A DNA stretch of 35,959 nt from Ignavibacteriales bacterium (GTDB lineage: Bacteria; Bacteroidota; Ignavibacteria; Ignavibacteriales; Melioribacteraceae), in NCBI GenBank assembly GCA_016234355.1, contig JACRFC010000169.1, positions 1-35,959 of the forward strand, read 5' to 3'. The position numbers and the translations under genes are program-made. Positions within the stretch are counted from its first letter, which is position 1. The number at the start of each line of letters is the position of its first letter. The notes under the pieces were generated by a model. It was not told where the DNA came from and searched no databases. It was given only the letters and a program-made list of their open reading frames with translations. Positions 1,720 through 34,358 of this stretch are shown piece by piece.

Positions 1720-3401
1720 TGAATATGATACGGAAAATAGAACCCTTAGTTGAAGTATGGAATGTTTTCGGCTATCAAAACATCAGCCAGTATATCTCCA
1801 GCGTAAGGATTCAGAACAGTGTTGATACTCCGGTTGGAGTGATGACATTAGTTATTAACCCAAGCGCAACAAGCAGTTTGCCAACCTCAATTATACATAA
1901 CGCTATTCTAAATGAAGCGCAGAAAAGATTAGAACTAAACTCGATTGTTTCGGCGAAGATAGATAAAAATTCCGAGAAGCATTCTTTTCTTGGAAGGATT
2001 GACAATATTTATCCACGGATATCAGCAGACGGAAATAACACACAGCGGGAATTAGTTGTTAATTGCTCAATGCTATTGCCAAAAATTTTAATAAGAGATG
2101 AGATAATAAACTTCCCTTTGCTACAATATATGCCGGGCGCAAAAGAAAAACTTGGCACAGAGAGAGTAATGTTTTTAGAAGGCATGAGAGGGAACGTATC
2201 GGAAGATAAGACGAACGTATTTCAAGGCAGTAAACCGGAAGACGCAGTAAAGTGGATTATAGAAAATTGCATAGCGACTAATACCACAGTTACTAATGGA
2301 CGGACACGAGGCGGAAACATAGTTGCAAAATCTTTTTTCAACCCTAAGAAAGCCGCGACGTTCCGTTTTCGTTTTCTTTTAGGGGAACAACTTTACAATC
2401 CAATCCTCTCAGTGTATGCCGGTCCATTGTTAAGCTATATTATTTCATGTATTGACGTGGCTTTTTATGAAATTTTCTTCGACACCGAAACGGGAGAGGA
2501 CGGGCTCGCATATAATGTTATGACTGTGAGACCCAAGCCCTTTTCGTTTGTTGATTACAAACCGCAGCACAGTGCAAGCAAAAATTATAATGTAATAACC
2601 GGATGGGTAAATTTTGATAGTTACGAAAAGGAAAATCTTTTGGATAACCGACATAAAAAGGGAGTAGTAGATGCCATTACAAAAAACAGTGAGCAGAGAT
2701 TAACCGATACAACCGGAATTTCCGATTATGAGTTAAAGAATTCCTTTTCCGTAACCTTTCAACAATCAATAATGGCACCGGCAAATAGTTTGTTTGGGCA
2801 GTTAGGCCCTCTTTTCCCGCTACTAAATTTTGACAGCATTAAACGATATGGCTTAAGACATCTTCAGCTGGATTCTACTGTAAGCAACTATGAAAGCCCA
2901 AAAGAAAAATACAATAGGATGATAGCGAGCAAAACACCGCAAGATCTTGCCAAAATTATGAGTGAACCAAAAGGAGAACTTGAAGCTTTATTTGATAAAC
3001 GGGAAAAAGTATTTGAATGGTATGCTTATCCATATTTTGAAAGCGGATCAATTACATGGGTGGGTGATGAAAATTTGAAAGTTGGACAACGATTAATATA
3101 TGAAGACAAAGAATTTTTAGATCCAGAAGAGAAGAAAGTTTACCACGGAGTGGAATATTATATCAACAGTATTGCGCATGAGTTTGCGTATGGTAGATTT
3201 TTTAGAACTACAACAGAATTAAGCAGAGGAGCGCCGAAAGGATTAGCAGCAAAATGGCTTAATAAAAATAGAGCTGATTTCATAAGTCCAACGGAGCTAG
3301 ATTATGACCTATATATGAACAAAGGTATTAGGGTTGATAAGGTCTATGAACGACCGACTATGGAAGAGATGTTGCAAAATGGACTAACGGAAATTGTATG
3401 A
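1719..3401 (+). CDS. Probable phage tail/baseplate structural protein
   Basis: 560-aa ORF overlapping the upstream tail gene by 1 nt; context and composition consistent with a baseplate hub-like protein; no catalytic motif recognised. Confidence 0.5.
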   Translation: MNMIRKIEPLVEVWNVFGYQNISQYISSVRIQNSVDTPVGVMTLVINPSATSSLPTSIIHNAILNEAQKRLELNSIVSAKIDKNSEKHSFLGRIDNIYPRISADGNNTQRELVVNCSMLLPKILIRDEIINFPLLQYMPGAKEKLGTERVMFLEGMRGNVSEDKTNVFQGSKPEDAVKWIIENCIATNTTVTNGRTRGGNIVAKSFFNPKKAATFRFRFLLGEQLYNPILSVYAGPLLSYIISCIDVAFYEIFFDTETGEDGLAYNVMTVRPKPFSFVDYKPQHSASKNYNVITGWVNFDSYEKENLLDNRHKKGVVDAITKNSEQRLTDTTGISDYELKNSFSVTFQQSIMAPANSLFGQLGPLFPLLNFDSIKRYGLRHLQLDSTVSNYESPKEKYNRMIASKTPQDLAKIMSEPKGELEALFDKREKVFEWYAYPYFESGSITWVGDENLKVGQRLIYEDKEFLDPEEKKVYHGVEYYINSIAHEFAYGRFFRTTTELSRGAPKGLAAKWLNKNRADFISPTELDYDLYMNKGIRVDKVYERPTMEEMLQNGLTEIV

Positions 3402-4312: not shown

Positions 4313-5098
4313 TTACTCCTCATATATATAGTCAAATATCTTTTCATGTGTAAGCATTTCATTTGAGTAATAAAGCAATGACCGCATTAACATTCTGTTC
4401 TCATCATCGTATTCGAATATTTCTTTCTGTTTTATTATACCTCGCGAGTTAAATGATTCGCGGCAAATTAATTCTTTGTTTTCGTTATATGATAAATCTT
4501 CATAACCAATCAACTTATCATTTGAGTCGTATTCGTCAATATGAATATCTAGTCCGTCAATATTTTTTATCCGAACATTTTTTAGCTGAACATTACCATC
4601 TGAATTGTAAAAATATTGAATATCATTTTTCACACTTCTGTCTATGTGAATCGAGTGAAAAACTCCGTCTTCATTCGAAGCTTCAATGTTTTTTTGCTTT
4701 CCATTTTCATCGAATTCAAATTCAATTATTTCATGTTTATTCTTGGAAAAATATTCCTGTCGTATAAGGTTATGCTCTTCATTATATATAAAGATTGTAC
4801 GGGATTCTTCATTCCAATTTTCATCATAGTCGATTTGTTCTATTAAATTATCATTTTCATCATAAATGAATTTTATGATTTCCGTTTCCTCTCCATATGA
4901 TTCTCTTCTAGAGATATTATTCTTATTATCATCAACAAAACGGTGTTCTATCTTTCCATCAGTTGAATAATGAATATCTTCTTCTACCTCATTCTCTGTG
5001 TCGTATTTGTGCTCATAGTATAGGAATGATCTTTCTTCGGGCGGATTACTTGAGTAATCTTTGAAGATGCAGAAAATCCTGTAATCAGTTTTTAGCAT
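4313..5098 (-). CDS. YD-repeat-like protein
   Basis: Repeated Y/F-D-E-N-x(n)-E/R-x-x-x-Y units (e.g. FIYDENDNLIEQIDYDENWNEESRTIFIYNEEHNLIRQEYF). Confidence 0.6.
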   Translation of the reverse strand: MLKTDYRIFCIFKDYSSNPPEERSFLYYEHKYDTENEVEEDIHYSTDGKIEHRFVDDNKNNISRRESYGEETEIIKFIYDENDNLIEQIDYDENWNEESRTIFIYNEEHNLIRQEYFSKNKHEIIEFEFDENGKQKNIEASNEDGVFHSIHIDRSVKNDIQYFYNSDGNVQLKNVRIKNIDGLDIHIDEYDSNDKLIGYEDLSYNENKELICRESFNSRGIIKQKEIFEYDDENRMLMRSLLYYSNEMLTHEKIFDYIYEE

Positions 5099-5116
5099 AA
5101 AAGTATCTCACACTAA

Positions 5117-6154
5117 TTAATTTAATCTTGCAAATTCTGATTCTTGAAAAACATACGAGATCAATTGGTTGCCCCTTAAATCCATCACTCCCTTTTTACC
5201 TAATTCTGTAAACTGGATAATTCCTTCATGAAATATTGGAGGTTGCTCAAATTTAAATGGAGTTAAAAAATCCTGTTCTAATCCAAGAAGCGCCCAATTG
5301 TACTTTGCTTTTACCGGAAGCATCCCGTTTTGGGCATAAGCCACATCTCTGAAAATGAATTCAGTTATTTGTTCTCCGTTTTTATCAATAACTCCCCAAT
5401 AACCGTCTTTTTTGACAATCAACTTATCTTCATATGCAAAGGCTGCTTCATCATAAATCGGATCAATGACAAATTCATTTTCGCGGTTAATAAAGCCGGC
5501 TCGTTCCCCGATCGAAGCAGCGGCTAATCCATATTCAAAGCGGGAGACTTTATCATAAATAGGTGGGATTACCATATCCCCGTAAATGTTTAGAAATCCA
5601 TACTTATTGTTTTGCTTAACTCTCACAAGCCACTCCGATACGTAATCGTTTTCATTGAGCAGATCAAAAGGGTTGATTATTTTTGAACGGAATTCAAATG
5701 AGGTTATAAATTGACCCTTACAATTTACAAGTGCTTCTTCCTTATAATTTGCATTGTCACTAAATCTAGCGACTTTAGCTACACCGCAATCGAAGGGTGT
5801 AGTTAGTAGTGGTTCATCGTAGACAAATATTTCATTTCCCTCTTTATCAATTATCATTGTGTCCTGCAGATTAGAAACGAAGGCATATCCCTGGCTGAAA
5901 TCTTCGGCGAGATCGTATTTGTAGATAACTTGATGATTGCCGAGTCGGTTGATATAGCCGGATTTATCCCGTTTTTCGATTCTTGCTAAATCATCATGGA
6001 AATCGTAGAGAGTACAGCGGTCAAACCAAATCCTTGAGTCGTTTTTAAGCTGTATTCCTTTTTCTAGGAGGCCGTTCTTTTTCCTATAAACGATGCAACT
6101 TCCGTTAATAAAGTCTCCGCAAATAATTTGTTCATTTTTAGAATTCATCATCAA
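5117..6154 (-). CDS. WG-repeat (KWG-type) protein
   Basis: Repeats such as NKYGFLNIYGDMVIPPIYDKVSRFEYGLA, ERAGFINRENEFVIDPIYDEAAFAYEDK, GYWGVIDKNGEQITEFIF. Confidence 0.85.
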   Translation of the reverse strand: MMMNSKNEQIICGDFINGSCIVYRKKNGLLEKGIQLKNDSRIWFDRCTLYDFHDDLARIEKRDKSGYINRLGNHQVIYKYDLAEDFSQGYAFVSNLQDTMIIDKEGNEIFVYDEPLLTTPFDCGVAKVARFSDNANYKEEALVNCKGQFITSFEFRSKIINPFDLLNENDYVSEWLVRVKQNNKYGFLNIYGDMVIPPIYDKVSRFEYGLAAASIGERAGFINRENEFVIDPIYDEAAFAYEDKLIVKKDGYWGVIDKNGEQITEFIFRDVAYAQNGMLPVKAKYNWALLGLEQDFLTPFKFEQPPIFHEGIIQFTELGKKGVMDLRGNQLISYVFQESEFARLN

Positions 6155-6203
6155 CTCCTAGTTTTTCTAATCCAAATGTATCTGCTGGATTAGATGTTAA
6201 GAG

Positions 6204-6218
6204 TATCATTAAATGATA
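6204..6218. promoter_or_regulatory. 15-bp palindrome TATCATT-A-AATGATA, putative operator
   Basis: Same sequence at 11115-11129, within an identical 18-bp string GTATCATTAAATGATATT; lies between divergent genes. Confidence 0.5.
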
Positions 6219-6273
6219 TTTTAAATGTTTGTGTAGTTAATGAAATTAGAATTCATTTTATTTGATTCAGAAT

Positions 6274-6291
6274 TTTCTGCACGTGCAGAAA
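6274..6291. promoter_or_regulatory. Perfect 18-bp palindrome TTTCTGCACGTGCAGAAA, putative operator
   Basis: Reads identically on both strands; in the divergent intergenic region 6155-6403. Confidence 0.55.
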
Positions 6292-6403
6292 TCCATTTAA
6301 ATGAATCTATTATTGTAACATTAAATGAGTTTTGAAAATCGAAAAATTTATTCCATTGAATCTGCGCAAACGAGTAACCAACAATAAGGGAAGGAGAATA
6401 ATT

Positions 6404-6640
6404 ATGAGTAGAATTAAAATTAGTGTACCTTATACAGAGATGTACGCTGTAGAGGATGCAATTTCTAGGGATCCACATGATAAGTTGGGTAGTGTAATTC
6501 GCTTGATTGATCATTACCTGGAATCTGAATATGAATGTGAGGATGGGAAAATAGTAAAACCATACGAATTCTATATAGGATCTACTTCTCAAGATTATAG
6601 AATGAGAGCTTCAAAGCATGGAGCTGAATATGTGAATTAA
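6404..6640 (+). CDS. Small hypothetical protein (78 aa)
   Basis: MSRIKISVPYTEMYAVEDAISRDPHDKLGSVIRLIDHYLE...; RBS-like AAGGAGA upstream of ATG 6404 favours this start over 6332. Confidence 0.65.
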   Translation: MSRIKISVPYTEMYAVEDAISRDPHDKLGSVIRLIDHYLESEYECEDGKIVKPYEFYIGSTSQDYRMRASKHGAEYVN

Positions 6641-6810
6641 TGGTAGTAGTTTATAAGGAAAGATCTATCAAAAGAATGATGGAGATGGAAAGTTTATTAA
6701 ATGACCAATACATTAGATACTCAAACAATGTAAAGGGTGGCTCTGCTGGTCCTCGCGCTCAAGATTCCGATGACTATAAATATGTTTATGTATGTTTTAA
6801 AATGAAATAA
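6640..6810 (+). CDS. Small hypothetical protein (56 aa), translationally coupled
   Basis: TAATG overlap with the preceding stop; MVVVYKERSIKRMMEMESLLNDQYIRYSNNVKGGSAGPRAQDSDDYKYVYVCFKMK*. Confidence 0.5.
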   Translation: MVVVYKERSIKRMMEMESLLNDQYIRYSNNVKGGSAGPRAQDSDDYKYVYVCFKMK

Positions 6811-6818
6811 ATTACATT

Positions 6819-7319
6819 TTGTCTATGAATTTTCTAGCAATAGATTTCGAAACAGCCAATTATTATCGGGATAGTGCTTGCGCTGTTGGATTGGTACGCG
6901 TCGAAAATCTACAAATTGTTGAGCGAAAATGTCTACTGATTAAACCGCCGTCAAAATGGTTTGTCTTCTCTTACTTACATGGAATTACATGGGAGGATGT
7001 TAAAGAGCAACTAGATTTTGGATCTCTCTGGAATGAAATTGAACCTTTCTTCGCCGGAATTGATTTTGTGGTTGCCCACAACTCCAGTTTCGATTCTTCG
7101 GTTTTGAGAGCGCTCTGTAATAGATACAATCTTGAAATGCCGAATATCAACTTCAAATGTACTGTCAACATCTCTAGAAAACTTTGGGGAATTTATCCAA
7201 CCAAACTCTCAGATGTCTGCAATAAATTTGGAATTCCTCTTCAACATCATGAAGCTATGTCAGATACACTTGCGTGTGCAGAAATAATGATAAAGGCTAT
7301 TAAAGAAGGATATTCATAA
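6819..7319 (+). CDS. DEDDh 3'-5' exonuclease (DNA polymerase III epsilon-like)
   Basis: LAIDFETAN, VVAHNSSFDSSVL, HHEAMSDTLACAEI motifs. Confidence 0.9.
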   Translation: MSMNFLAIDFETANYYRDSACAVGLVRVENLQIVERKCLLIKPPSKWFVFSYLHGITWEDVKEQLDFGSLWNEIEPFFAGIDFVVAHNSSFDSSVLRALCNRYNLEMPNINFKCTVNISRKLWGIYPTKLSDVCNKFGIPLQHHEAMSDTLACAEIMIKAIKEGYS

Positions 7320-7336
7320 ATACAAAGAGGTTAGAA

Positions 7337-7525
7337 ATGAAAAAAAATCTTACTGAAGCTAGTTTTTCTAATCCGAATGCATCTGTTGAAACGCATTTTC
7401 GTAGCATCATTAAATTAGATTTAATGAATAAGAAATGGAATTGTTATAAAAAAATATTAGTGTGTTTTATAAAGATGGTCTTAATGAGATTTACTTGGCA
7501 TCAGAATATTTCTTATATCAGATAA
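7337..7525 (+). CDS. Hypothetical ORF, possibly degraded
   Basis: RBS-like AGAGG before ATG; N-terminus SFSNPNASVETHFRSIIK is repeated at 6160-6216; 3' end overlaps the convergent nuclease gene. Confidence 0.3.
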   Translation: MKKNLTEASFSNPNASVETHFRSIIKLDLMNKKWNCYKKILVCFIKMVLMRFTWHQNISYIR

Positions 7526-8407
7526 GTTTTTTTCTAAATAATCTGGGAATTCAATTATGTTATTTAGATTTTTAGCACATTCGTCTAAATCGAGATAGTT
7601 TCTAAAATATATTTTAAAATTTATAATATCCTCATGTTTTAAATCAGTTTGAGATAGTAATCTTCTAATGTCTCCCTTTCGACTCTTTTGGGGAATATCT
7701 TGGATATATTTAAGCACTAGCTTATCATTCATAATCAAAGTCTTTGAACCATCCTCAATATTTTCTATCCAATGCATTTGGTTTTTAGTTAAGGGTTTGT
7801 TGATACTTCTTTTTGATATTAACACATGCTTGATATTAGTATATCCATAACCGAGTGCATTCTTATAAATTCTTAAATAATTTAGATATTGATCGATATT
7901 ATATCTTGCGTCAACTTTGATCTCAACAAGTATCACTCTACCATTTTTATCAATCAAAATCATATCAGCATATAAGCCATACCTATCATCATCTTCGTAT
8001 TGTAATTTCCAAAGTTTAAGAGATTCATATCTTTCATTTAATAATTGAGAAAAAAAATTATCTAGTAAAGAACCTTTACTTTTATGAAAAGAATCTATTA
8101 ATCGTGGAGCAATAACAAATTCTAATTTTTTACTATGCTCGATTCTCTCTTCAGAAATTGATTCCCCAACCTTACTTGCTAAATCTTTTACAACATTAAA
8201 AAAGTTGGAAATTCTTTCAGCCTGATTAAACCTGCTAACATCTTTATTTATTATATGTATACTGTTTGTTAGAATGGCAATTATATTTTTCTCTTTCGGT
8301 AACTCCATTAATACTCTTCTAAATTTGATTTCCCATAATAATTTATCTTCTAAGAAATAATCAGAGTCTCTGATTTCTAACAAATTGTTATCAAAATTAA
8401 ATGCCAT
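7481..8407 (-). CDS. PD-(D/E)XK nuclease superfamily protein
   Basis: YADMILIDKNGRVILVEIKVDARYNIDQYLNYL: D-x(n)-EIK core plus downstream QYLNYL helix. Confidence 0.7.
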   Translation of the reverse strand: MAFNFDNNLLEIRDSDYFLEDKLLWEIKFRRVLMELPKEKNIIAILTNSIHIINKDVSRFNQAERISNFFNVVKDLASKVGESISEERIEHSKKLEFVIAPRLIDSFHKSKGSLLDNFFSQLLNERYESLKLWKLQYEDDDRYGLYADMILIDKNGRVILVEIKVDARYNIDQYLNYLRIYKNALGYGYTNIKHVLISKRSINKPLTKNQMHWIENIEDGSKTLIMNDKLVLKYIQDIPQKSRKGDIRRLLSQTDLKHEDIINFKIYFRNYLDLDECAKNLNNIIEFPDYLEKNLSDIRNILMPSKSH

Positions 8408-8463
8408 TACACTTCCTTATATATTCAATTATACAATAATATCATTAAAGGATGTTAAAAATA

Positions 8464-8574
8464 ATGGAAAAAATACAAAATGTTATTTTTCTTAAACTAG
8501 AAAGGTTTTATAATGGTAAAAATGAAACAGTGAATGGAATTAGGAAAGTGTATGATAATTATTGTTTTAAGTAA
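8464..8574 (+). CDS. Possible small ORF (36 aa)
   Basis: MEKIQNVIFLKLERFYNGKNETVNGIRKVYDNYCFK*; no clear RBS. Confidence 0.2.
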   Translation: MEKIQNVIFLKLERFYNGKNETVNGIRKVYDNYCFK

Positions 8575-8653
8575 ATAAAAGAGAAATAATAAAGAGTTAT
8601 TACAAGAGAATTATTTCTAGTCATGAATATTATTTTCTTCATAAATGATTACA

Positions 8654-9919
8654 TTATTTAAACCTTCTGTTGACATATCTATTAAACCACTCTTGAGTAA
8701 TTCGTCTTAACTCCACTGAAACACTGCGATTTCTAAAACCTCGAAGATCACCTAAGTGTACAGCATCTTTATTAATTCTAACCTCGAGTGTTGCTTCCTC
8801 ACTACCATTTATTACTTTCTAGAAATAACACTTATTTGATTTTACTGCCGGTATGTATCCACGAATGCAGTTCTGTTGCTTCTTAGCCCAGGAAGTTTGT
8901 TCATCAATGTTGCGGAGTGCAATAATATTCTTGGTACCTGTAATTGGCGGATTAGGGAATCTAGCATAGTTGGATTTTCTTGTCTGAGCTTTGATTTTTA
9001 CTTTGTTCTCTATCTCCGTCAAATTGCTGATTTCCTTGATTTGATCGAACTTTATATTCCAACGCTGGGATAACGAGGTTATATTCCCAACACTTTGAGA
9101 GAATCTAATAAAATTTTCAGAATGAATAAGACCGTTAATAGCATTTATTGAAAGAAAATTAAATGAATATGGGTTTTCTGAAAGAAGAGTCAAAAGGTTA
9201 CGGTTAAAACTTTTCAGATGTGACAACACTTTTAATATTTGGATCCTGAGATCAGAATCCATTCTCATTATATTACGAAAATCTATAAGTGAATTTAACT
9301 TTAAGTGAGACGGCTGAAACTTAGCCAAGATGTTCAACATGTTTTGTGTACCGGGAAAATGAGCTTTGTGCAAAATTTCTTTTCGTTTCTGCGGGAGAAG
9401 GACTTCTAAAAAGTTGAGGTGATTATATAGAGAGAATGAGTGATTGAACTTATCAATATTGACTGAGATATAAGCAATGATAGGATCAGATTTCAAAAGT
9501 GAAATAAAATTTTCACCGAAATAAATGCTGGCTTTTATCAGTTCTGAATTAGAGTCGTTAAAGGGAGAGATATTTTTTAATAAATCTTCAGGAAATTTCT
9601 CAAAAAATTTTCTCTCATTCAAAGTGTTGTCATTTAATTTGATAAATGAAGAAGAGTCCTGCTCAGTACTCCCATCAGGATTTTGAGCCGGCACTTTTTC
9701 CTGTGCGACAGCAATACTGGACGGTAAAATAATCTTATATGTGGCGATGTTTATTTCTGGTTGGACTTCAATCCAGAAATCAGCATCTGTTGCCGATATA
9801 AATCCTCTGAGATGAGGGTAACCTAAAAGAATGTAAGTATAGTCAGGATGATTGAACTGGAAGAACTTGTATTCTCCTAGTTCGGAACGAAGCTTTTTTA
9901 AAAGGTTTGATCGAGTCAT
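8654..9919 (-). pseudogene. PcfJ-like protein gene interrupted by one in-frame TAG (8819-8821)
   Basis: LRNIDEQTSWAKKQQNCIRGYIPAVKSNKCYF-[TAG]-KVINGSEEATLEVRINKDAVHLGDLRGFRNRSVSVELRRITQEWFNRYVNRRFK*; the second part continues in the same frame and looks like the missing PcfJ-type C-terminus. Confidence 0.75.
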
Positions 9920-9950
9920 CTACCAACTACAGAACTATATTATTATGAAA

Positions 9951-10907
9951 TCAGTTTAACAATTTGCCTGCTATTTCTTCAAGTAATATTCGTTTTGACA
10001 TTGAATAATCTTTTGCTCTTTCAGTAATCAAATTGAACAGATCATATTTTGTTATTTGCCGATCCGATTCTAAAAGATCACTCAGAATTTTTACACCAAG
10101 TTTTTTCATAATCTCTCGGTTTACTTTATAAATAAATTCGGAAGATATCGGTCGATCCATTTCGGAAAGTTTTTTATTTATAACTTCAGCGTAATTTAAA
10201 CGTTCTCGAAGTTTGTAATCTAATAATTGATAGGCATCTTGGAGAAATAAATTATAATGCGATAGACACACTTCATCGCCCTGGAATTTAACATAAGCTC
10301 GGTTACTGCATACATATCTTAATAGATAATTATTAATCTGAAATGTTCTAAACCCGGTTTCTGAATTAACGATACTTAGCCCTACTCCGAACACATCCTT
10401 TCCGAACACTTTATTGGGGAATGGTTCAATTGTAACCAGCGTTTCTGTATTTATAAAGGTATCATAATCGTTTATGAATACACTTTCTACATTTTTATCA
10501 TCAAGTCTTCGAAGTATCTCAAGATCTTCAACTTCCGTAAATTTACTGCTTGTTATAGTGAGAGCTTCTCCTTGTTCGCATTTAATATTAACATAACGGT
10601 TCTTCATACCTAAGAGATAATCATTCAATAAAGATGTTACTGTTTCAATGTCGAGTATTTTTAACTGATAGGTAGGGAAAGAATGCCACCTTAAGAGTTT
10701 ATATAAAAATGTTTCCCGCATTGGCAGCTGTTTTATTCCATTGTCGAATATCTCAAGGAACAGAGTCTTTCCATTGTTAATGACATGTAATTGTTCGGGC
10801 TCGACCTGGATAATTTCTGTTTTTAATTTCAGTAAATAATCAATTGCGTCATTTCTATCAGAAAACATTTTCATTTTTCCGGTGGGTTGCTTTACTATCA
10901 TAAACAC
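9951..10907 (-). CDS. DUF932-like phage/plasmid-related protein
   Basis: VFGVGLSIVNSETGFRTFQINNYLLRYVCSNRAYV matches the DUF932 'G..NSETG...R..CsNg' pattern. Confidence 0.7.
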   Translation of the reverse strand: MFMIVKQPTGKMKMFSDRNDAIDYLLKLKTEIIQVEPEQLHVINNGKTLFLEIFDNGIKQLPMRETFLYKLLRWHSFPTYQLKILDIETVTSLLNDYLLGMKNRYVNIKCEQGEALTITSSKFTEVEDLEILRRLDDKNVESVFINDYDTFINTETLVTIEPFPNKVFGKDVFGVGLSIVNSETGFRTFQINNYLLRYVCSNRAYVKFQGDEVCLSHYNLFLQDAYQLLDYKLRERLNYAEVINKKLSEMDRPISSEFIYKVNREIMKKLGVKILSDLLESDRQITKYDLFNLITERAKDYSMSKRILLEEIAGKLLN

Positions 10908-10908
10908 C

Positions 10909-11058
10909 TCAACTTATTTTTATTGCCGATTGATGAATTAGAAAATTATTATACATAAGTTCTAATCCTATGAGTTCTTTAGTCTCAAATCTTTTTTCTT
11001 CGCCTACTCCAACACTTTTGAAAGAACTTTTCTCCACTGATACAACTTTCGTTTTCAT
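10909..11058 (-). CDS. Small hypothetical protein (49 aa)
   Basis: RBS AAGGAG upstream of ATG at 11058; MKTKVVSVEKSSFKSVGVGEEKRFETKELIGLELMYNNFLIHQSAIKIS*. The track start at 11139 has less support. Confidence 0.55.
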   Translation of the reverse strand: MKTKVVSVEKSSFKSVGVGEEKRFETKELIGLELMYNNFLIHQSAIKIS

Positions 11059-11114
11059 CTCTTTCTCCTTATAGATTTCTGATTCAAACATAACAGACAG
11101 TTCTTTCCTTCCGG

Positions 11115-11129
11115 TATCATTAAATGATA
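11115..11129. promoter_or_regulatory. 15-bp palindrome TATCATT-A-AATGATA, putative operator
   Basis: Identical to 6204-6218; between the WYL regulator (+) and the DUF932/PcfJ operon (-). Confidence 0.5.
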
Positions 11130-11198
11130 TTAGTTGCACCTATTTGGACAGTAATGTAATTTGAATTTGAAAATTGAAAAGAGGACTCTTTTCCTTAT

Positions 11199-12059
11199 AT
11201 GAAAGATCTCAAGGTAAAGATTAAACGTCAGACCGAGATTTTAGGTTTAATTCTTGCTCACCCAGGTAAATATCAATTATATGATTTGGAAGAGATGTAT
11301 GGAGTCAATGATCTAACTATAAAGAGAGATCTGCAGGAGCTTCGCTCATTCGGAATTGATATTCATTCGGAAGGGAAGAAAGGAATAAACATCACTTCCA
11401 AGATATCTAATGATATCCTCAAAGCAATCATACCTCAATATATAGGCATCGCTGTAAATCAAAGCTCATACGATCAAGCGACCAATCTTTTTATAAGTAA
11501 ACTCGGCTCTAAATCCATTTCAACGCCAACACAACTTCAGATGTGTATAGACCAAAATTTTCAAGTGAAGATATCGTACCAAAAACCGGAAGAGAAAATT
11601 GTTGAGGAAAGGATTTTAGAACCATACTGCATATTTCAAGGAGATAAACATTGGCGGCTACTTGCCAACCACAATGGATCGATTAAGCAGTTTCTACTGA
11701 ACAATATAAAGACAATTGAAAGGCTTGAAAAGAAGTTCAAACCAATTTCACAAAAAGAGATAGATGAAATCTTCGGTACTTCTTTTAAGTGCTGGCTCGG
11801 CAAGGAAAGATATACTGTGAGGCTGAAGTTTCTTCCACCTTGGCCTGATAGAATGAAGCCTCGACAGTTAATGGAATTTCAGAAAGTGATAGAAGAACCG
11901 GATGGTTCGATTATTTACGAGACCGTCGTTAACTCACTTAACGAGATTACTTCATGGATTGTAAGTCGCGGAGAGGGGGTTGTTGTATTAGAGCCAGAAG
12001 AATTAAAACAGAATGTAATTAGTATAGCAAAGGGGGTTATGAAGAATTATACCTCTTAA
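11199..12059 (+). CDS. HTH-WYL domain transcriptional regulator
   Basis: N-terminal HTH (YQLYDLEEMYGVNDLTIKRDLQELRSFGIDI) plus WYL-type region (VKISYQKPEE...EPYCIFQGDKHWRLLANHNGSIKQFLLNNIKTIERL). Confidence 0.85.
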   Translation: MKDLKVKIKRQTEILGLILAHPGKYQLYDLEEMYGVNDLTIKRDLQELRSFGIDIHSEGKKGINITSKISNDILKAIIPQYIGIAVNQSSYDQATNLFISKLGSKSISTPTQLQMCIDQNFQVKISYQKPEEKIVEERILEPYCIFQGDKHWRLLANHNGSIKQFLLNNIKTIERLEKKFKPISQKEIDEIFGTSFKCWLGKERYTVRLKFLPPWPDRMKPRQLMEFQKVIEEPDGSIIYETVVNSLNEITSWIVSRGEGVVVLEPEELKQNVISIAKGVMKNYTS

Positions 12060-18557: not shown

Positions 18558-20099
18558 ATGCTACACACACAAAAAATTTTAATACTCGATTTTGGTTCGC
18601 AATTCACTCAGCTAATCGCAAGAAGAATCCGCGAGAGCAAAGTTTATTCTGAAATTCATCCGCATACTTATCCGATTGAACAAATAAAAAAAGAAAAGCC
18701 GGTTGGAATAATTTTATCCGGCGGACCAATGAGCGTAAACGAATCCGATTCACCGAGAATTTCAGAAGAAATTTTAGAACTCGGTATTCCCGTACTTGGT
18801 ATCTGCTACGGATTACAATTAATCTGTAAATTACTCGACGGGAAAGTTGAACCGGCTTCCGACCGTGAGTATGGCAAAGCTCATTTGGGTATTATAAAAA
18901 ATGATCTTCTTTTTAACGGTGTTGGAGATGACTCGGTTATATGGATGAGTCACGGGGATTATGTTACAAAATTGCCGGAAGGATTTTCTTTGACCGCTAA
19001 AACCGAAAATTCTCCGCTTTGTGCAATTTCAAATCCGCAGAAGAAAATTTATGGAATTCAGTTCCATCCAGAAGTAGCTCATACAATATTTGGCAAGAAA
19101 ATATTAGATAATTTTTTGTTTGATATTTGCAATTGCAAAGCTGATTGGACTTCTAAAAATTTCATTAATAGTGTAATGGTAGAAGTAAAACAAAAAATTG
19201 GGAATAAAAAAGTGATCTGTGCTTTAAGCGGCGGTGTGGATTCATCTGTTGCCGCTGTTTTAATTCATCAGGCAATCGGCGATCAACTTGTTTGTATTCA
19301 TGTAGATCATGGTATGATGCGTAAGGATGAAAGTACTTCTATTATTAAAATGTTTAGTGATAATTATAAGATGCGTGTTGAACATGTTGATGCTTCTCAA
19401 CTTTTTCTTTCACGACTTGCCGGCGTAACAGATCCCGAAAAGAAAAGGAAAATTATCGGCAACACTTTTATAGAAGTATTTGAAACCGAAGCCAAAAAAT
19501 TTTCTGATGCAGAGTTCCTCGTTCAAGGTACACTTTATCCCGATGTAATAGAATCGGTCTCTGTGAAAGGTGCATCAGTTACTATAAAGACACATCATAA
19601 TGTTGGTGGACTTCCGGAAAAAATGAATTTGAAATTGATCGAACCATTCCGTGAGCTTTTTAAGGATGAAGTAAGAGCGATAGGAAGAGAACTTGGTTTG
19701 CCGGATATTTTTGTTAAACGTCACCCGTTTCCGGGTCCCGGACTTGCCGTGCGTGTTTTAGGCGAGATTACTGTAGAAAGATTAGATTTGCTTCGTGAGG
19801 TTGATGCTATTTATATCAATGAGCTACTGAATGCAAATATTTACGATAAAATCTGGCAAGCATTTTCAGTTTTACTGCCGATCCAAACTGTCGGTGTTAT
19901 GGGAGATGCACGTACTTATGAGAATGTGATAGCTCTAAGAGCTGTTACTTCAACAGACGGAATGACAGCAGACTGGTTTAGATTTGATCATGATTTTCTT
20001 GAAACCGTATCGAATAAAATTATTCGTTCAGTCCGCGGTGTTAATCGTGTTGTTTATGATATAAGTTCTAAACCGCCTGCCACCATAGAATGGGAATAA
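18558..20099 (+). CDS. guaA: GMP synthase (glutamine-hydrolysing)
   Basis: [49 protein letters not shown]. Confidence 0.98.
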
Positions 20100-28670: not shown

Positions 28671-29201
28671 ATGAAAATCAAATCTTCCTCTCTTATCCCA
28701 ATCGAAAGAATTACTTCCAAGATTTATTTATTACGCGGAGATAAGGTCTTGCTTGATCGCGACCTTGCCGAATTGTATGGCGTCGAAACAAAAAAATTAA
28801 ATCAGGCAGTTAAAAGAAACATAGGAAGGTTTCCACGGGATTTTATGTTCCAATTAACAATAGAAGAATCTAGTTCTCTAAGGTCACAATTTGTGACCTT
28901 GAAGAAAGGTCAACATTCCAAATATTTACCATACGTTTTTACAGAGCAGGGCGTTGCTATGTTATCGTCCATATTAAATAGCGAACGCGCCGTGCAGGTA
29001 AACATTGCAATTATGCGCGCGTTTGTACAGATGAGAAAATTTCTGCAGAGCAATGAAGAACTTTCGAAGAAGTTGAACGATCTTGAGAAAGAAACGGGAA
29101 AGAAATTTGCAGCACAGCAGAAGCAGATTAAACTTGTTTTCGATGCTATAAGAGAACTGATGATGGAGAATGTAAAACCGAAAAGAAAGATTGGTTTTTG
29201 A
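28671..29201 (+). CDS. ORF6N-domain DNA-binding protein
   Basis: [46 protein letters not shown]...[15 protein letters not shown]. Confidence 0.93.
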
Positions 29202-29244
29202 ATTGCCATAGCGCTTACCCGGCATTTCTTAACAGAGTTGACGG

Positions 29245-29327
29245 CTTGCCCGCCGTTTTTTTTGGCGGGGCTTGCCTGCCGTTTTTGGCGGGGTGAGCCT
29301 GCCTGCCCCGTGTTTTTTACGGGGGTG
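29245..29327. repeat. Cluster of three GC-rich hairpins
   Basis: CCCGCC-T-tract-GGCGGG; CCTGCC-T-tract-GGCGGG; CCCCGT-T-tract-ACGGGG in an otherwise AT-rich region. Confidence 0.75.
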
Positions 29328-29342
29328 GAAAAATGCTTTGAT

Positions 29343-29371
29343 TAGTTTGTATTTTATTTTAAGTTGCACTT
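29343..29371 (+). repeat. 29-bp direct repeat, copy 2
   Basis: Identical to 28570-28598. Confidence 0.9.
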
Positions 29372-29441
29372 ACTGCAAGGGTCGGGTCTTATGATTGTTT
29401 CTAAGATTTATATTTTTTTGCAATTGCAAAGAGGATAAACA

Positions 29442-30806
29442 ATGTCAGATTCAATTCAAGAAATATCTGTAATAGTACCAGAAAATCCATTTCTTTCTAA
29501 AGAATACGCGGAATATAAACATTGCCTTTGTGCATTGCCCGTAGCAAAACTTATGCAATGGTGGCCGGGTACTCCCCATGTCCCACACCGAAATGCAGAT
29601 AAGGTAAAAGCTATTCAACGTTTCTTGGATTGGAAAAGAGTTGCACAAATTGCTGCTTATTTACTCCAATGTGAGATTGTAGATACGTCCGCTAAATTAG
29701 ATAAATACTTCAATAATATTTATGAACCTAGAAAAAATGAACCGGGTAGAGAGTGGCCACCCAAAATCAGTAAAGTAATTGGTTTTGAGAGAAGTGAGTA
29801 TCGTGTATTCTCAAATATATTAGTCCATATCAATGGAGCTGAATTAAAGGAAAAAGAGATTAATGGTGAAAAGAAACGTGCAGGAATGTTAAGTTTTGAT
29901 GAGGAAGATCCCAAATTGTTTTTCTCTGTTATAGATGGGCAACATAGAATCAACGGTGCTTATCTTGCACTTAAAATATTACAAGAAAAGAATCCTGATG
30001 CGACTTGGGATTTACCTGCCGAAGTCTTTTTGGATCTTGACCCAGTAGGCCAACCAAGATTACAAGCACAAATTTTTATTGACGTAAATTTTTATCAAAA
30101 GAAAGTTGATAGATCTTTAGTTGCTGATCTTTTCCCAACCGCACGAGGCGCTCGTAAATCGCTAGATGACAAAGAAAGAGCTCAAGATATTGGCCGAAGA
30201 CTCATGCTTGAAACTGGACCACTTGTAGGTATGATTCAAATACCTGGGATCAAGTTTGGTTTTAAAGATGTAATTACTTTAGCAACATTGAATAATGCTA
30301 TTGAGGATATCCTTGAGGTATTAAGAATAAACGGTATAGACAACATTAATAGCCAAACAGAATTTCTTTCACAATGTTTAAATTCATGGCTTCAAGCAAG
30401 TGGGAGATTTGAAAATCCTGAATCTCACGAGAAAAAAGAACTAAGTCCAGCAAATGTTGCTTATCAGGGTCGTGTATTAGTTTCGGTTCTTGCATTAATT
30501 CCAGCGTTGATCTGGAAATTACGTACAAAGAAAGTTGTCTTAATTTCAGATAAAGCAAGCGAAATGCTTATTAGTTTTCTAAAATCAATAGCACAGAATG
30601 CTGGGCTTCTTGATAACGGAATTTTTATTGACAAAAATAAATTCAAGAAGCGAGATTTTTTAGGAAGTGGTGGTATAGCACGTTTCAGAGATTTGCTATG
30701 GGCTTCAATTAAGGGGAGAAAGACAGCACGATTAAAACCTGAACGAGTAAGTAAAATAGCGGAAGAGAATAAATCTAGTGTTAATAAATATTTTTCGAAT
30801 AAATAA
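29442..30806 (+). CDS. DGQHR-domain (DndB-like, ParB-related) protein
   Basis: FFSVIDGQHRINGAYLALKIL...IFIDVNFYQKKVDRSLVADLFP. Confidence 0.85.
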   Translation: MSDSIQEISVIVPENPFLSKEYAEYKHCLCALPVAKLMQWWPGTPHVPHRNADKVKAIQRFLDWKRVAQIAAYLLQCEIVDTSAKLDKYFNNIYEPRKNEPGREWPPKISKVIGFERSEYRVFSNILVHINGAELKEKEINGEKKRAGMLSFDEEDPKLFFSVIDGQHRINGAYLALKILQEKNPDATWDLPAEVFLDLDPVGQPRLQAQIFIDVNFYQKKVDRSLVADLFPTARGARKSLDDKERAQDIGRRLMLETGPLVGMIQIPGIKFGFKDVITLATLNNAIEDILEVLRINGIDNINSQTEFLSQCLNSWLQASGRFENPESHEKKELSPANVAYQGRVLVSVLALIPALIWKLRTKKVVLISDKASEMLISFLKSIAQNAGLLDNGIFIDKNKFKKRDFLGSGGIARFRDLLWASIKGRKTARLKPERVSKIAEENKSSVNKYFSNK

Positions 30807-30814
30807 GTTTTCAA

Positions 30815-31642
30815 ATGACACTTGAATTTCAAATTCAGAAAATATTTGATACCTTGCAGATGCAAGGAGGCACACTTCCTCAACATGGAATAATGTCAAA
30901 TAAGCTAGGTAAGATAGCACCTAAACGAGGTTCGCTCGATGTACCAGTTAAAACAGAAATTGTAAAACTTTTTGCGACAGCTTCTATTGAAATGTGGTTA
31001 AGAGCCATCCATAGTTTTCTAATATCCACAGCACTGACAAACGCTAGTCCTTTATGGGCATCTATTTCTGGTTACTATTCAAGTCACTATACGATCCGAG
31101 CTTTAGCTCATTTATTAGGTATCTATCAATTACGAAAGAACAGATTTACTGTAACTCTACAATCCTCTAAGACTGGTTTTATATGTAGTTTCAAAGAAGG
31201 CAGAAATAGAGAACATTCTTTCTATTGGAATAAAGTCAAAGAGCATCCATACTTTTTCACTGACCAGTTATTTACGGATAATCCTGAAGATGCTGATATT
31301 TCTGATGCAGGACATCGGAATTTAGCTACGTATATAGATCATCTAAATAAATTTCCCAATTTTTCACCTTTAACTTATGATGAAATGAAACAAAGAATTG
31401 AATATATATCCAAAATTGAGATAAAGTCTTATCCTATCCCCATGAGAACAAAATATCCAGATATAGACTCTGTTCAGATCGTTGCGTATCATCGAATTGT
31501 TTACTTTAGAGAGCTAATAAATAATGTGTTAGGAGATTCTAATCGGTTTTGGTCTGTTCATAGAAATCCTAGTTGGTGTCGTGGCATTATTGACTTCCAA
31601 AGGGTAAAACCTCAATTAATAGCTTCAATAGGACAGCAATAA
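30815..31642 (+). CDS. Uncharacterised protein of a defence-like operon
   Basis: 8-nt gap after the DGQHR gene and 1-nt gap before the methyltransferase gene; WASISGYYSSHYTIRALAHLLGI resembles a HEPN-type helix (weak). Confidence 0.6.
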   Translation: MTLEFQIQKIFDTLQMQGGTLPQHGIMSNKLGKIAPKRGSLDVPVKTEIVKLFATASIEMWLRAIHSFLISTALTNASPLWASISGYYSSHYTIRALAHLLGIYQLRKNRFTVTLQSSKTGFICSFKEGRNREHSFYWNKVKEHPYFFTDQLFTDNPEDADISDAGHRNLATYIDHLNKFPNFSPLTYDEMKQRIEYISKIEIKSYPIPMRTKYPDIDSVQIVAYHRIVYFRELINNVLGDSNRFWSVHRNPSWCRGIIDFQRVKPQLIASIGQQ

Positions 31643-31643
31643 T

Positions 31644-32771
31644 ATGAAGTATATGGGCTCAAAAAGACTGATGCTGAAGAATGGTCTTGGTCAAATGTTA
31701 AAAAGAGAAATGAATGATGCTAATAGATTCGTCGACATCTTCGTGGGTTCAGGTGTTGTTGCAGCTCATGTTGCTGAAAATTATGATATAATAGTACATG
31801 CATACGACCTTCAACTTTACAGTGCAATTATTTCAGATGCGATTATTGGTAGAGTGAAAATTATTGATTGGCAACCATTGTGGGATAATTGGGAAAGGAA
31901 TGCAAGAGATTTATTCAAAACTTATAATGTACCTTCCATAAAAAAAATAACTCAGCTTATAGTTAAGAGTTGTCGAGCTTGGTGCGCAAAACAGAAAGAC
32001 CTTCCAATAACCAAAGCTTATGGTGGTCATTATTATAGTCCTAAACAAGCTGTATGGATTGATGCACTCAGAGCTACATTACCAGAAGATAACACTTTAA
32101 GAAAAGTTGCACTAGCAGCTCTGATTCAGGCCGCGAGTAAATGCGCCGCAGCACCAGGGCATACTGCTCAACCGTTTCAACCAACCCGTACCGCTAAACC
32201 ATATCTTACTGATGCATGGGGAAAAGATATTTTACAAAATACTAAAGTAGCATTCCTTTCTCTTTCAAATCGTTTTGCTAAGAAAAAAGGTTTTGCAAAA
32301 GTTGCTAATGCTAATGTTGTTGCAGATCAACTTGAAAAAGGTGACTTGGTGTTTATAGATCCGCCCTATTCAGGTGTTCATTACAGTCGCTTTTATCATG
32401 TTATTGAAACGATAGCGCAAGGTAAATGTGGTAATGTTTCGGGAGTTGGTCGTTATCCAGATTCAAAACTAAGACCACGTTCAAAATATAGTATGAAATC
32501 GGAGTCACAGAATGCACTCGATGAATTACTAAAAAAGATTGCTTCAAAAAAAGCTAAAGCAATTCTTACATATCCAGATCACGAATGTTCAAATGGACTT
32601 TCAGGTAAAATTGTGAGAGAAGCTGCAGAAAAATATTTTTCAGTTGAAAAGAAATCTGTTAAAAGTAATTTTAGTTCACTTGGCGGAAGAAGTAATGGGG
32701 ATAAAAATACAGCAGGCCGAGATGCACGTCGAAACGCCAACGAACTTATACTTTTACTAAAACCCAAATGA
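31644..32771 (+). CDS. D12-class DNA N6-adenine methyltransferase
   Basis: KYMGSKRLM, FVDIFVGSGVVAAHVA (SAM motif), LVFIDPPYSGVHYSRFYHVIE (DPPY). Confidence 0.88.
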   Translation: MKYMGSKRLMLKNGLGQMLKREMNDANRFVDIFVGSGVVAAHVAENYDIIVHAYDLQLYSAIISDAIIGRVKIIDWQPLWDNWERNARDLFKTYNVPSIKKITQLIVKSCRAWCAKQKDLPITKAYGGHYYSPKQAVWIDALRATLPEDNTLRKVALAALIQAASKCAAAPGHTAQPFQPTRTAKPYLTDAWGKDILQNTKVAFLSLSNRFAKKKGFAKVANANVVADQLEKGDLVFIDPPYSGVHYSRFYHVIETIAQGKCGNVSGVGRYPDSKLRPRSKYSMKSESQNALDELLKKIASKKAKAILTYPDHECSNGLSGKIVREAAEKYFSVEKKSVKSNFSSLGGRSNGDKNTAGRDARRNANELILLLKPK

Positions 32772-33586
32772 GTATCGCTATGGAAAGTCAGCATCGTTCT
32801 TTTTCTATTCGCATTTTTCTTGCTGAAGGAAGTCCTTCTGGTCTTAAGTTTGTTGAAAAATCAAATTGGATTGGGCTTGGTGTTGTTTGTCCGCGACCAC
32901 GATTATCAAGTGTGAAAGAACGAAAGGAATTTGATCGCGCTGCTATTTATGTCCTAATTGGTCCTTCTGATACATCAGATCTTCCACTTGTATATATCGG
33001 TGAAGGTGATCCTGTTCGAACTAGATTAGAGGATCATCATTCAAAAAAAGATTTTTGGACGATTGCCTATTTCTTTACAAGTAAAGATGCAAATCTTAAC
33101 AAAGCTCATATTCAATATTTGGAACACCGGTTAATCACTTTAGCAAAGGAAGCCAAACGCTGTAAATTTGATAATCTGAATGTTCCTACTGCACCTTCAT
33201 TATCAGAGGCAGAGTATGCCGATATGGAAGTATTTCTTGAAGAAATGCTTTTGTGTTTTCCAGTATTAGGTGTTACTATCTTTGAAAAGCCGGAACTCAA
33301 ACCAAGACAACACCAAATACTTATTCTCAAAAATAAAGGTGTTCATGCTGAAGGTTACAAATCGGAAGATGGTTTTGTTGTGAAAAAAGGTTCAACTTGT
33401 GTTATAGAAACTGTTCCATCCATTCACACACATGTTGTCGATCTACGTAGTGATTTTCTTAAAAGTGACCTCTTGATTAAACGTGATGACCATTTTTTTG
33501 AATTATCACAAGATTATGAATTTTCATCACCATCGTTGGCTGCAACATTTCTTTTAGGGGCGAACATAAATGGAAGAGATTGGTAG
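32768..33586 (+). CDS. GIY-YIG nuclease with DUF4357-like C-terminus
   Basis: AIYVLIG...VYIGEGDPVRTRL...YLEHRLI (catalytic Glu)...LNVPTAP; C-term DGFVVKKGSTCVIE...FSSPSLAATFLLGANINGRDW. ATGA overlap with the methyltransferase gene. Confidence 0.88.
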   Translation: MSIAMESQHRSFSIRIFLAEGSPSGLKFVEKSNWIGLGVVCPRPRLSSVKERKEFDRAAIYVLIGPSDTSDLPLVYIGEGDPVRTRLEDHHSKKDFWTIAYFFTSKDANLNKAHIQYLEHRLITLAKEAKRCKFDNLNVPTAPSLSEAEYADMEVFLEEMLLCFPVLGVTIFEKPELKPRQHQILILKNKGVHAEGYKSEDGFVVKKGSTCVIETVPSIHTHVVDLRSDFLKSDLLIKRDDHFFELSQDYEFSSPSLAATFLLGANINGRDW

Positions 33587-33674
33587 AAAACATCTAATGG
33601 AATAACTCTGAAACAGTTACAAGAAAAAGCTGAGGATAACAGTTAATACACAAAAGCAACTTGACTGAAATAAC

Positions 33675-34358
33675 CTAATCCGCAATTGCCACAGAAGCCG
33701 CATAGATATTAGCCGCACCGCTTTCTAAAATAATTCTTCCGCATTCGGCAATAGTAGCGCCGGTTGTTATAACATCATCAATCAGCAGCACATTTTTATT
33801 TTGTAATAATTTATTGCGGCGAAGAGCAAAAGCATCTTTCATGTTTTCCTTTCTCTCAACTAAATTCATACTTGTCTGTGTCTCTGTAAAACGGACGCGT
33901 TTTATTAATCTGCTTTTTACCGGAACTTGTAAAATCTTTTTCATTCCCTTCGCAATAAAATCCGATTGATTGTATCCGCGTTCCGCACGTTTTAAGTGAT
34001 GCAAGGGAATCGGAACAATCAGATCAATTTTCCATTCTTGAATTTTATCATTTACGGCGGCGGCTAATAATTTGCCGAGGAAAACTCCGATACTGAATTT
34101 ACCGTTGTACTTCAGATCGTGGATTATATCCTGAAGCTCTTTATCTTTCTCAAAAACAAAGAGGGAAGTAAATCCTTTTATGATCTTCTCGTTCTTAAAT
34201 TTTCTGGCGAATTCGATTTCGGTTCTTTCACTATCTGTATGCTTTATTTTTGATAAACAAGAATTGCATACAACAATTTCCGTGCTGGTAAGTTTATTTT
34301 TGCAAGATGGACAGAAACGAGGAAGGAAGAAATCGGAAATGTCGGTTAGAAAGTTCAT
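33675..34358 (-). CDS. comF: ComF-family phosphoribosyltransferase-like protein
   Basis: FCPSCKNKL...CNSCLSKI; VLLIDDVITTGATIAECGRIL-type PRPP motif. Confidence 0.9.
   Translation of the reverse strand: MNFLTDISDFFLPRFCPSCKNKLTSTEIVVCNSCLSKIKHTDSERTEIEFARKFKNEKIIKGFTSLFVFEKDKELQDIIHDLKYNGKFSIGVFLGKLLAAAVNDKIQEWKIDLIVPIPLHHLKRAERGYNQSDFIAKGMKKILQVPVKSRLIKRVRFTETQTSMNLVERKENMKDAFALRRNKLLQNKNVLLIDDVITTGATIAECGRIILESGAANIYAASVAIAD

What the first reader, a model, noticed from the sequence alone, without database searches (positions are those of the whole stretch)
29442..33586. Four-gene operon: DGQHR protein + unknown 275-aa protein + D12 adenine methyltransferase + GIY-YIG/DUF4357 nuclease
The four ORFs run in one direction with gaps of 8 nt, 1 nt and a 4-nt ATGA overlap, and sit between core genes (XdhC family, comF). 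The nuclease keeps the GIY, YIG, Arg and Glu positions and the methyltransferase keeps a SAM motif and DPPY. A modification enzyme plus a GIY-YIG nuclease is RM-like; the DGQHR gene (DndB-like, ParB-related fold) and the unknown gene are not part of a classical type II RM system as I know them. Inference: a modification-coupled defence system in which DGQHR and the 275-aa protein regulate or sense.
Basis: partly seen in the sequence, partly recalled or inferred. Interest (0 to 1): 0.85.

Follow-up and report, generated by a model that had tools for sequence, protein, structure and literature searches.

The report
Mobile DGQHR–X–adenine methylase cassette plus nuclease
The four-gene operon is real, but its lasting core is a three-gene cassette (a DndB-like DGQHR protein, an uncharacterised helper and a DNA adenine methylase) that also travels in prophages and plasmids and looks like an undescribed system that writes and uses a DNA mark, with the nuclease as an optional add-on.

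Summary
The four ORFs and family calls hold. The GIY-YIG start is probably 32780 (so the ATGA overlap is doubtful) and this gene ends about 20 codons before its relative.

Comparison changes the picture. DGQHR + X (the "unknown") + a D12 adenine methylase form a tight cassette in 17 loci: three Ignavibacteria, one other genome of the phylum, two plasmids, eleven viral contigs. Several sit at prophage cargo sites, two beside the portal gene as in the P2 gpA–gpQ defence hotspot. Only two of 17 carry GIY-YIG; one has an HNH gene instead. The methylase type (KYMGSK versus Dam/DpnM) changed at least three times on both the DGQHR and X trees, so DGQHR–X seems to need an adenine mark more than one particular enzyme. 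A DGQHR + window-type-X pair also follows DndC, DndD and DndE–HerA in a phosphorothioation locus.

X matches no Pfam, NCBIfam, PADLOC or PHROGs family. The cassette is not in PADLOC-DB 2023 and I found no paper describing it.

First reading partly supported: modification-coupled defence is plausible, but the system is DGQHR–X–methylase with GIY-YIG as an accessory. Function is untested.

The parts
29442..30806 (+). DGQHR-domain protein, 454 aa (DndB/GmrS-related, ParB/Srx-like fold by family)
   Evidence: TIGR03187 1.7e-23, PF14072 7.8e-13; QR pair, DGQHR and FxxxN invariant in 17 homologues
30815..31642 (+). protein X, 275 aa, uncharacterised family
   Evidence: No Pfam/NCBIfam/PADLOC/PHROGs hit; orthologues in L002 and L034; distant homologue beside DGQHR in a dnd locus, E 5.7e-5; likely counterpart of the ~420-aa prophage X family
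31644..32771 (+). D12-class DNA N6-adenine methyltransferase, 375 aa (KYMGSK/GHTAQPF subfamily)
   Evidence: PF02086 5.4e-13; KYMGSK, GSG and DPPY motifs kept; 47.5% identical to the Rhizobium plasmid copy
32768..33586 (+). GIY-YIG nuclease with C-terminal DUF4357 (accessory; PADLOC PDC-S14 family); probable true start 32780; ends about 20 codons early compared with L002
   Evidence: PDC-S14 3.1e-90, DUF4357 2.5e-11, catalytic residues kept; in-frame homologous codons continue after the stop
29240..29311 (+). terminator-like hairpins upstream, separating the operon from the ORF6N gene
   Evidence: 5 terminator-like sites in 29190-33750 against 2.3 expected, four of them here; consensus match only

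Best explanation
The operon is an Ignavibacteria version of a mobile three-gene module, DGQHR-X-adenine methylase, to which a GIY-YIG/DUF4357 nuclease gene has been added. Shown: the three genes are kept together across distant hosts and mobile elements, and the methylase can be exchanged for another type of adenine methylase (Dam/DpnM type) while DGQHR and X stay. Inferred: the methylase marks host (or prophage) DNA with N6-methyladenine. DGQHR, a relative of the DGQQR NTPase domain of GmrS/BrxU/SspE, works with X as a mark-reading, NTP-driven complex that tells marked from unmarked DNA and blocks incoming DNA. In the window the GIY-YIG protein would supply or boost cleavage; in other hosts an HNH enzyme may take that place, or DGQHR-X acts alone.
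For: All 8 full-length methylase relatives found in viral contigs with methylase-only patterns have DGQHR and X directly upstream. A search seeded by X found 11 loci, all with DGQHR upstream and a D12 methylase next to X. Plasmid examples: R. tumorigenes and Z. mobilis pZZM405. In the 16 D-X-M loci tabulated, all ORFs are intact, DGQHR and DPPY are present in all, and D-X gaps run from -8 to +8 nt. DGQHR and X identities correlate at 0.96 over all pairs. The methylase type changes at least 3 times on each of the DGQHR and X trees, forced by well-supported branches. A 17th locus has the permuted order M-D-X. Cargo positions: portal gene, integrase, CI repressor; the gpA-gpQ region of P2 is a known defence hotspot (PMC9122126). 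The argS-comF slot holds other cargo in sister species, for example HerA + methylase. Mechanistic precedent: DGQQR GTPase coupled to mark recognition and cleavage in SspE (PMC13251355); DGQHR resembles GmrS DGQQR (PMC4619093). A DGQHR + window-type-X pair follows DndC, DndD and DndE-HerA.
Against: There is no activity data. Most prophage copies show no adjacent nuclease, so restriction is not evident from sequence; DGQHR and X could merely regulate the methylase, as DndB represses the dnd operon (PMC4507180). Homology between the 275-aa window X and the ~420-aa prophage X is only suggestive: hhalign P 0.035; score above all 200 column-shuffled nulls. That the two methylase types write the same mark is not shown. 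The dnd link rests on one locus.
Confidence: 0.45

Rival explanations
1. RM-like system as first read: the methylase protects a site and the GIY-YIG enzyme cuts unmodified DNA, with DGQHR and X as regulators or subunits.
For: Tight operon with conserved order in two Ignavibacteria genomes; intact GIY-YIG residues; this nuclease family repeatedly sits in RM operons.
Against: GIY-YIG is missing from 15 of 17 core loci, including the Ignavibacteria locus L034. The window copy lacks the last part of DUF4357. The family rides with type I RM systems that already have HsdR.
Confidence: 0.25
2. Modification-only module: DGQHR and X control the expression or activity of the methylase, and the mark protects the mobile element from host restriction or regulates prophage genes. 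It is not a defence system.
For: Mostly in prophages and plasmids, usually without an adjacent nuclease; DndB is a transcriptional repressor of its operon (PMC4507180).
Against: Retention of both DGQHR and X through methylase swaps, including two with the methylase gene on the opposite strand, is more than a simple regulator would need; the DGQQR relatives are effectors; alternative cargo at the same chromosomal slot includes defence-like genes.
Confidence: 0.22
3. GIY-YIG acts as a separate modification-dependent (type IV-like) nuclease that happens to be co-transcribed.
For: PADLOC lists the family as a single-gene candidate; a different single-gene GIY-YIG system, CMoRE, is a type IV enzyme (PMC12923530); DUF4357 also occurs fused to GmrSD (PMC4619093).
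Against: In most inspected plasmids it lies beside RM genes rather than alone, and in L002 it starts 2 nt after the methylase.
Confidence: 0.2

Closest known systems
Dnd phosphorothioation systems (DndB = DGQHR protein; DGQHR_dnd_1)
   Same: DGQHR gene beside a DNA-mark-writing operon; a window-type X relative follows DGQHR in one dnd locus, L061
   Different: The mark writer here is an adenine methylase; no DndC, DndD or DndE; the DGQHR scores far below the DndB and DGQHR_dnd_1 cut-offs
GmrSD / BrxU / SspE (DUF262 DGQQR NTPase + DUF1524 nuclease)
   Same: QR, DGQ(H/Q)R and FxxxN motif set of the ParB/Srx-like NTPase
   Different: No DUF262 or DUF1524 match; a dedicated methylase and X are added
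Type II restriction-modification
   Same: Adenine methylase with a nuclease gene in one operon (two loci)
   Different: Nuclease absent or swapped in most loci; two constant non-RM genes
PADLOC PDC-S14 (GIY-YIG/DUF4357)
   Same: The fourth gene is a clear family member, 3.1e-90
   Different: PDC-S14 is a single-gene candidate; it does not cover DGQHR, X or the methylase
Dpd (7-deazaguanine) DpdB
   Same: DGQHR protein associated with a DNA modification; weak DpdB matches of the prophage DGQHR
   Different: Far below the DpdB cut-off; no other dpd genes seen

Membership tests
DGQHR domain family (TIGR03187) | model score above cut-off | tested here: met
   83.7 bits against 58.85; DGQHR, QR and FxxxN invariant
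DndB (TIGR03233) / DGQHR_dnd_1 (TIGR04172) | equivalog cut-off | tested here: not met
   22.4 against 328 and 44.4 against 450 bits
Dnd system | dndCDE genes adjacent | tested here: not met
   None among the neighbouring ORFs; present only in L061
D12 N6-adenine methyltransferase | PF02086 above cut-off and DPPY | tested here: met
   49.7 against 22 bits; DPPY in all tabulated copies
Type II RM | constant methylase + cognate endonuclease pair | tested here: not met
   Nuclease present in 2 of 17 (GIY-YIG) or swapped (HNH_2 in L034)
Type II RM | cleavage of unmethylated sites | not testable with these tools
   Needs biochemistry
GmrSD type IV | DUF262 and DUF1524 domains | tested here: not met
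   No such hits
PDC-S14 | PADLOC model match | tested here: met
   E 3.1e-90 over residues 4-271
P2-type prophage defence hotspot cargo | position between gpA and the portal gpQ | tested here: inconclusive
   L019 and L023 lie beside the portal gene; the gpA side was not examined
Known anti-phage system in PADLOC-DB 2023 | models covering DGQHR, X and MTase as one system | tested here: not met
   X: no hit; DGQHR: weak DndB/DpdB only; MTase: generic MTase_II. DefenseFinder was not available

The most novel reading that the evidence does not exclude
DGQHR + X is a general reader/effector pair that is combined with different DNA-mark writers (two kinds of adenine methylase, and a phosphorothioation machine) and defends without a classical restriction nuclease, nucleases being optional add-ons.
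Probability: 0.3. Interest if true: 0.82.

Novelty: new variant of a known kind. Interest (0 to 1): 0.62.

Why it matters
Modification-coupled defence has to link a mark writer to an effector. Here a pair of genes stays the same while the writer is exchanged, which points to reading of the mark itself and offers a natural set of swaps for testing how a DGQHR protein senses DNA marks. The role of DGQHR proteins outside DndB repression is open, X is an uncharacterised family, and the cassette is present in prophages and on plasmids of culturable species such as Zymomonas mobilis ZM4, so it can be tested directly.

Tried and rejected
AlphaFold of the window X with two sequences: pLDDT 34, not used. 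Foldseek of the prophage X model (pLDDT 81.6, pTM 0.87) against PDB and BFVD: nothing at E <= 0.001. An HEPN reading of X (YYxxxxxxR helix, RNxxxY) was considered from the motif pattern only and has no profile or fold support. Direct hhalign of the window X family against the prophage X family was not significant with 2-3 sequences; adding the dnd-locus relative improved it. Operator idea: TTTGCAATTGCAAA and TTGCA-N5-TGCAA lie upstream of DGQHR, but only CAATTGCAA persists in L002; not used. GATC depletion in the window: none. PDB sequence searches with the DGQHR, methylase and GIY-YIG proteins found no usable relative. Literature searches on DGQHR and PDC-S14 found no description of the cassette.

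Full report
Observation. The four ORFs are present as stated. Profile searches give DGQHR/DndB, a D12 adenine methylase and a DUF4357 protein that is a strong member of PADLOC's PDC-S14 candidate family; the 275-aa protein (X) matches nothing in Pfam, NCBIfam, PADLOC or PHROGs. Two corrections: by comparison with L002 the GIY-YIG start is probably 32780, which removes the ATGA overlap, and the reading frame stops about 20 codons before the end of its relative although homologous codons continue after the stop. An ORF6N gene lies between XdhC and the operon, and terminator-like hairpins separate it from the operon.

Same operon elsewhere. One other Ignavibacteria MAG (L002) has all four genes in order (93/76/73/82% identity). 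A third Ignavibacteria genome of another family (G470, L034) has DGQHR-X-MTase, an HNH_2 gene 157 nt upstream on the same strand, and no GIY-YIG match in the genome. The set is rare: X was found in 1 of 396 genomes of the phylum (the window's own), and DGQHR of the window type in 2 of 296 of the class.

The conserved core. The methylase profile, searched alone against viral contigs, gave eight full-length relatives (39-48% identity); every one is the third gene of DGQHR (~505 aa)-X (~420 aa)-MTase. X as the query gave 11 loci, three of them new, all with DGQHR upstream and a D12 methylase on the other side of X. Two plasmids carry it: Rhizobium tumorigenes pRt932 and Zymomonas mobilis pZZM405. 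Another genome of the phylum (G147, L060) has the three genes in permuted order M-D-X between chromosomal genes. In the 16 D-X-M loci tabulated the ORFs are intact, DGQHR and DPPY are universal, and the genes mostly overlap or nearly touch.

Methylase exchange. Twelve of the 16 tabulated loci have the KYMGSK-type methylase; four (L010, L023, L026, L029) have a Dam-type enzyme (the best solved relatives of the L023 copy are DpnM, 1.7e-57, and E. coli Dam), in two cases on the opposite strand. On both the DGQHR and X trees the type must have changed at least three times, as forced by strongly supported branches. DGQHR and X identities correlate at 0.96 over all pairs. The pair is therefore kept as a unit while the methylase is replaced; this is the strongest hint that DGQHR-X depends on an adenine mark rather than on one enzyme. 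A common GATC-type target is possible: Dam/DpnM relatives, and more distant KYMGSK relatives beside BglII/BstYI-family endonucleases. It is not shown.

Where it sits. Prophage copies neighbour the P2-type portal gene (L019, L023), integrases (L016, L017, L018, L029) or a CI-like repressor (L013, L026). The gpA-gpQ region of P2-like phages is an established hotspot of anti-phage systems (PMC9122126). The Zymomonas copy is followed by DUF4433 and macro-domain genes, which by my own knowledge resemble DarTG. In the window's own genus the argS-comF interval is variable: 0.4 kb with nothing (G394), xdhC only (G593), HerA + N4/N6 methylase (G323), XRE/ImmA + DUF4411 (G176), NYN-domain gene (G291). 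So the operon is cargo at a variable site between genuine core genes, not contamination.

The GIY-YIG gene. Relatives on plasmids lie inside or next to type I RM operons in L007, L041, L042, L043, L044 and L045, near RM genes in L004, L005, L006 and L040, and in no obvious RM context in L039 and L046. It is a promiscuous accessory of modification systems; with DGQHR-X-MTase it was seen twice, both in Ignavibacteria.

X and the dnd link. The prophage X family is predicted with good confidence (pLDDT 81.6, pTM 0.87) as a mostly helical protein with no match in PDB or BFVD. The window X family is shorter; its relation to the prophage family rests on the same slot, the same order of W, YY, HxxxW and RNxxxY motifs, and a profile comparison that beats all 200 column-shuffled nulls but has hhalign P 0.035. 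In genome G099 (L061), DndC, DndD and a DndE-HerA fusion are followed by DGQHR and then a 319-aa protein that the window X profile finds at E 5.7e-5 among 693 sequences, the next being a shuffled one at 1.5. The same gene pair thus seems to accompany phosphorothioation as well.

Mechanism. DGQHR proteins share their QR, DGQ(H/Q)R and FxxxN motifs with the GmrS domain (PMC4619093). In SspE the DGQQR motif is required for GTP hydrolysis, which couples mark recognition to cleavage (PMC13251355). DndB itself is a repressor (PMC4507180). The best-supported reading is a mark-writing methylase with a DGQHR-X complex that uses the mark; whether to restrict foreign DNA (favoured), to regulate, or to protect the element is not decided by sequence.

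Novelty. PADLOC-DB 2023 has no model set for the cassette and no paper found here describes it. DefenseFinder and subscription literature were not available, so 'undescribed' is limited to these sources.

Noticed in passing
window 28671-29201: ORF6N/Rha-like gene directly upstream is itself a strong match to PADLOC candidate PDC-S05 (2.2e-63).
   Followed up: partly
L047 2409-5947 (G323): The argS-comF slot of a close relative holds a HerA-like ATPase followed by an N4/N6 DNA methylase, another possible modification-defence pair.
   Followed up: partly
L048 740-2379 (G176); L050 2042-4265 (G291): Same slot: XRE/ImmA metalloprotease + DUF4411 pair, and an NYN-domain gene with a 309-aa unknown; the slot looks like a small hotspot of the genus.
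   Followed up: partly
window 33580-33646: Codons homologous to the C-terminus of the L002 nuclease continue in frame after the stop of the GIY-YIG gene, so the window copy ends about 20 codons early.
   Followed up: partly
L061 483-7494 (G099): dnd locus with DndC, DndD, a DndE-HerA fusion, DGQHR and a window-type X relative; no dndFGH seen before the contig end.
   Followed up: partly
L007, L041, L042, L043, L044, L045: GIY-YIG/DUF4357 genes lie inside or next to type I RM operons in six plasmids of several phyla.
   Followed up: partly
L009 1084-5051: Acinetobacter plasmid: BglII/BstYI-type endonuclease, HTH gene, KYMGSK-type methylase, small membrane-like protein and DGQHR in a row.
   Followed up: partly
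window 29417-29430 and 19126-19139: Perfect palindrome TTTGCAATTGCAAA just upstream of DGQHR and once more in the window (0.06 expected at up to 1 mismatch).
   Followed up: partly
window 79-3401 and 4313-12059: Large proteins without Pfam match, WG-repeat protein, RNase T-type exonuclease and a WYL regulator; looks like a further variable region.
   Followed up: no
L014 1320-2411: A PD-(D/E)XK-like gene (PF14281, below cut-off) lies upstream of one prophage cassette; link uncertain.
   Followed up: no
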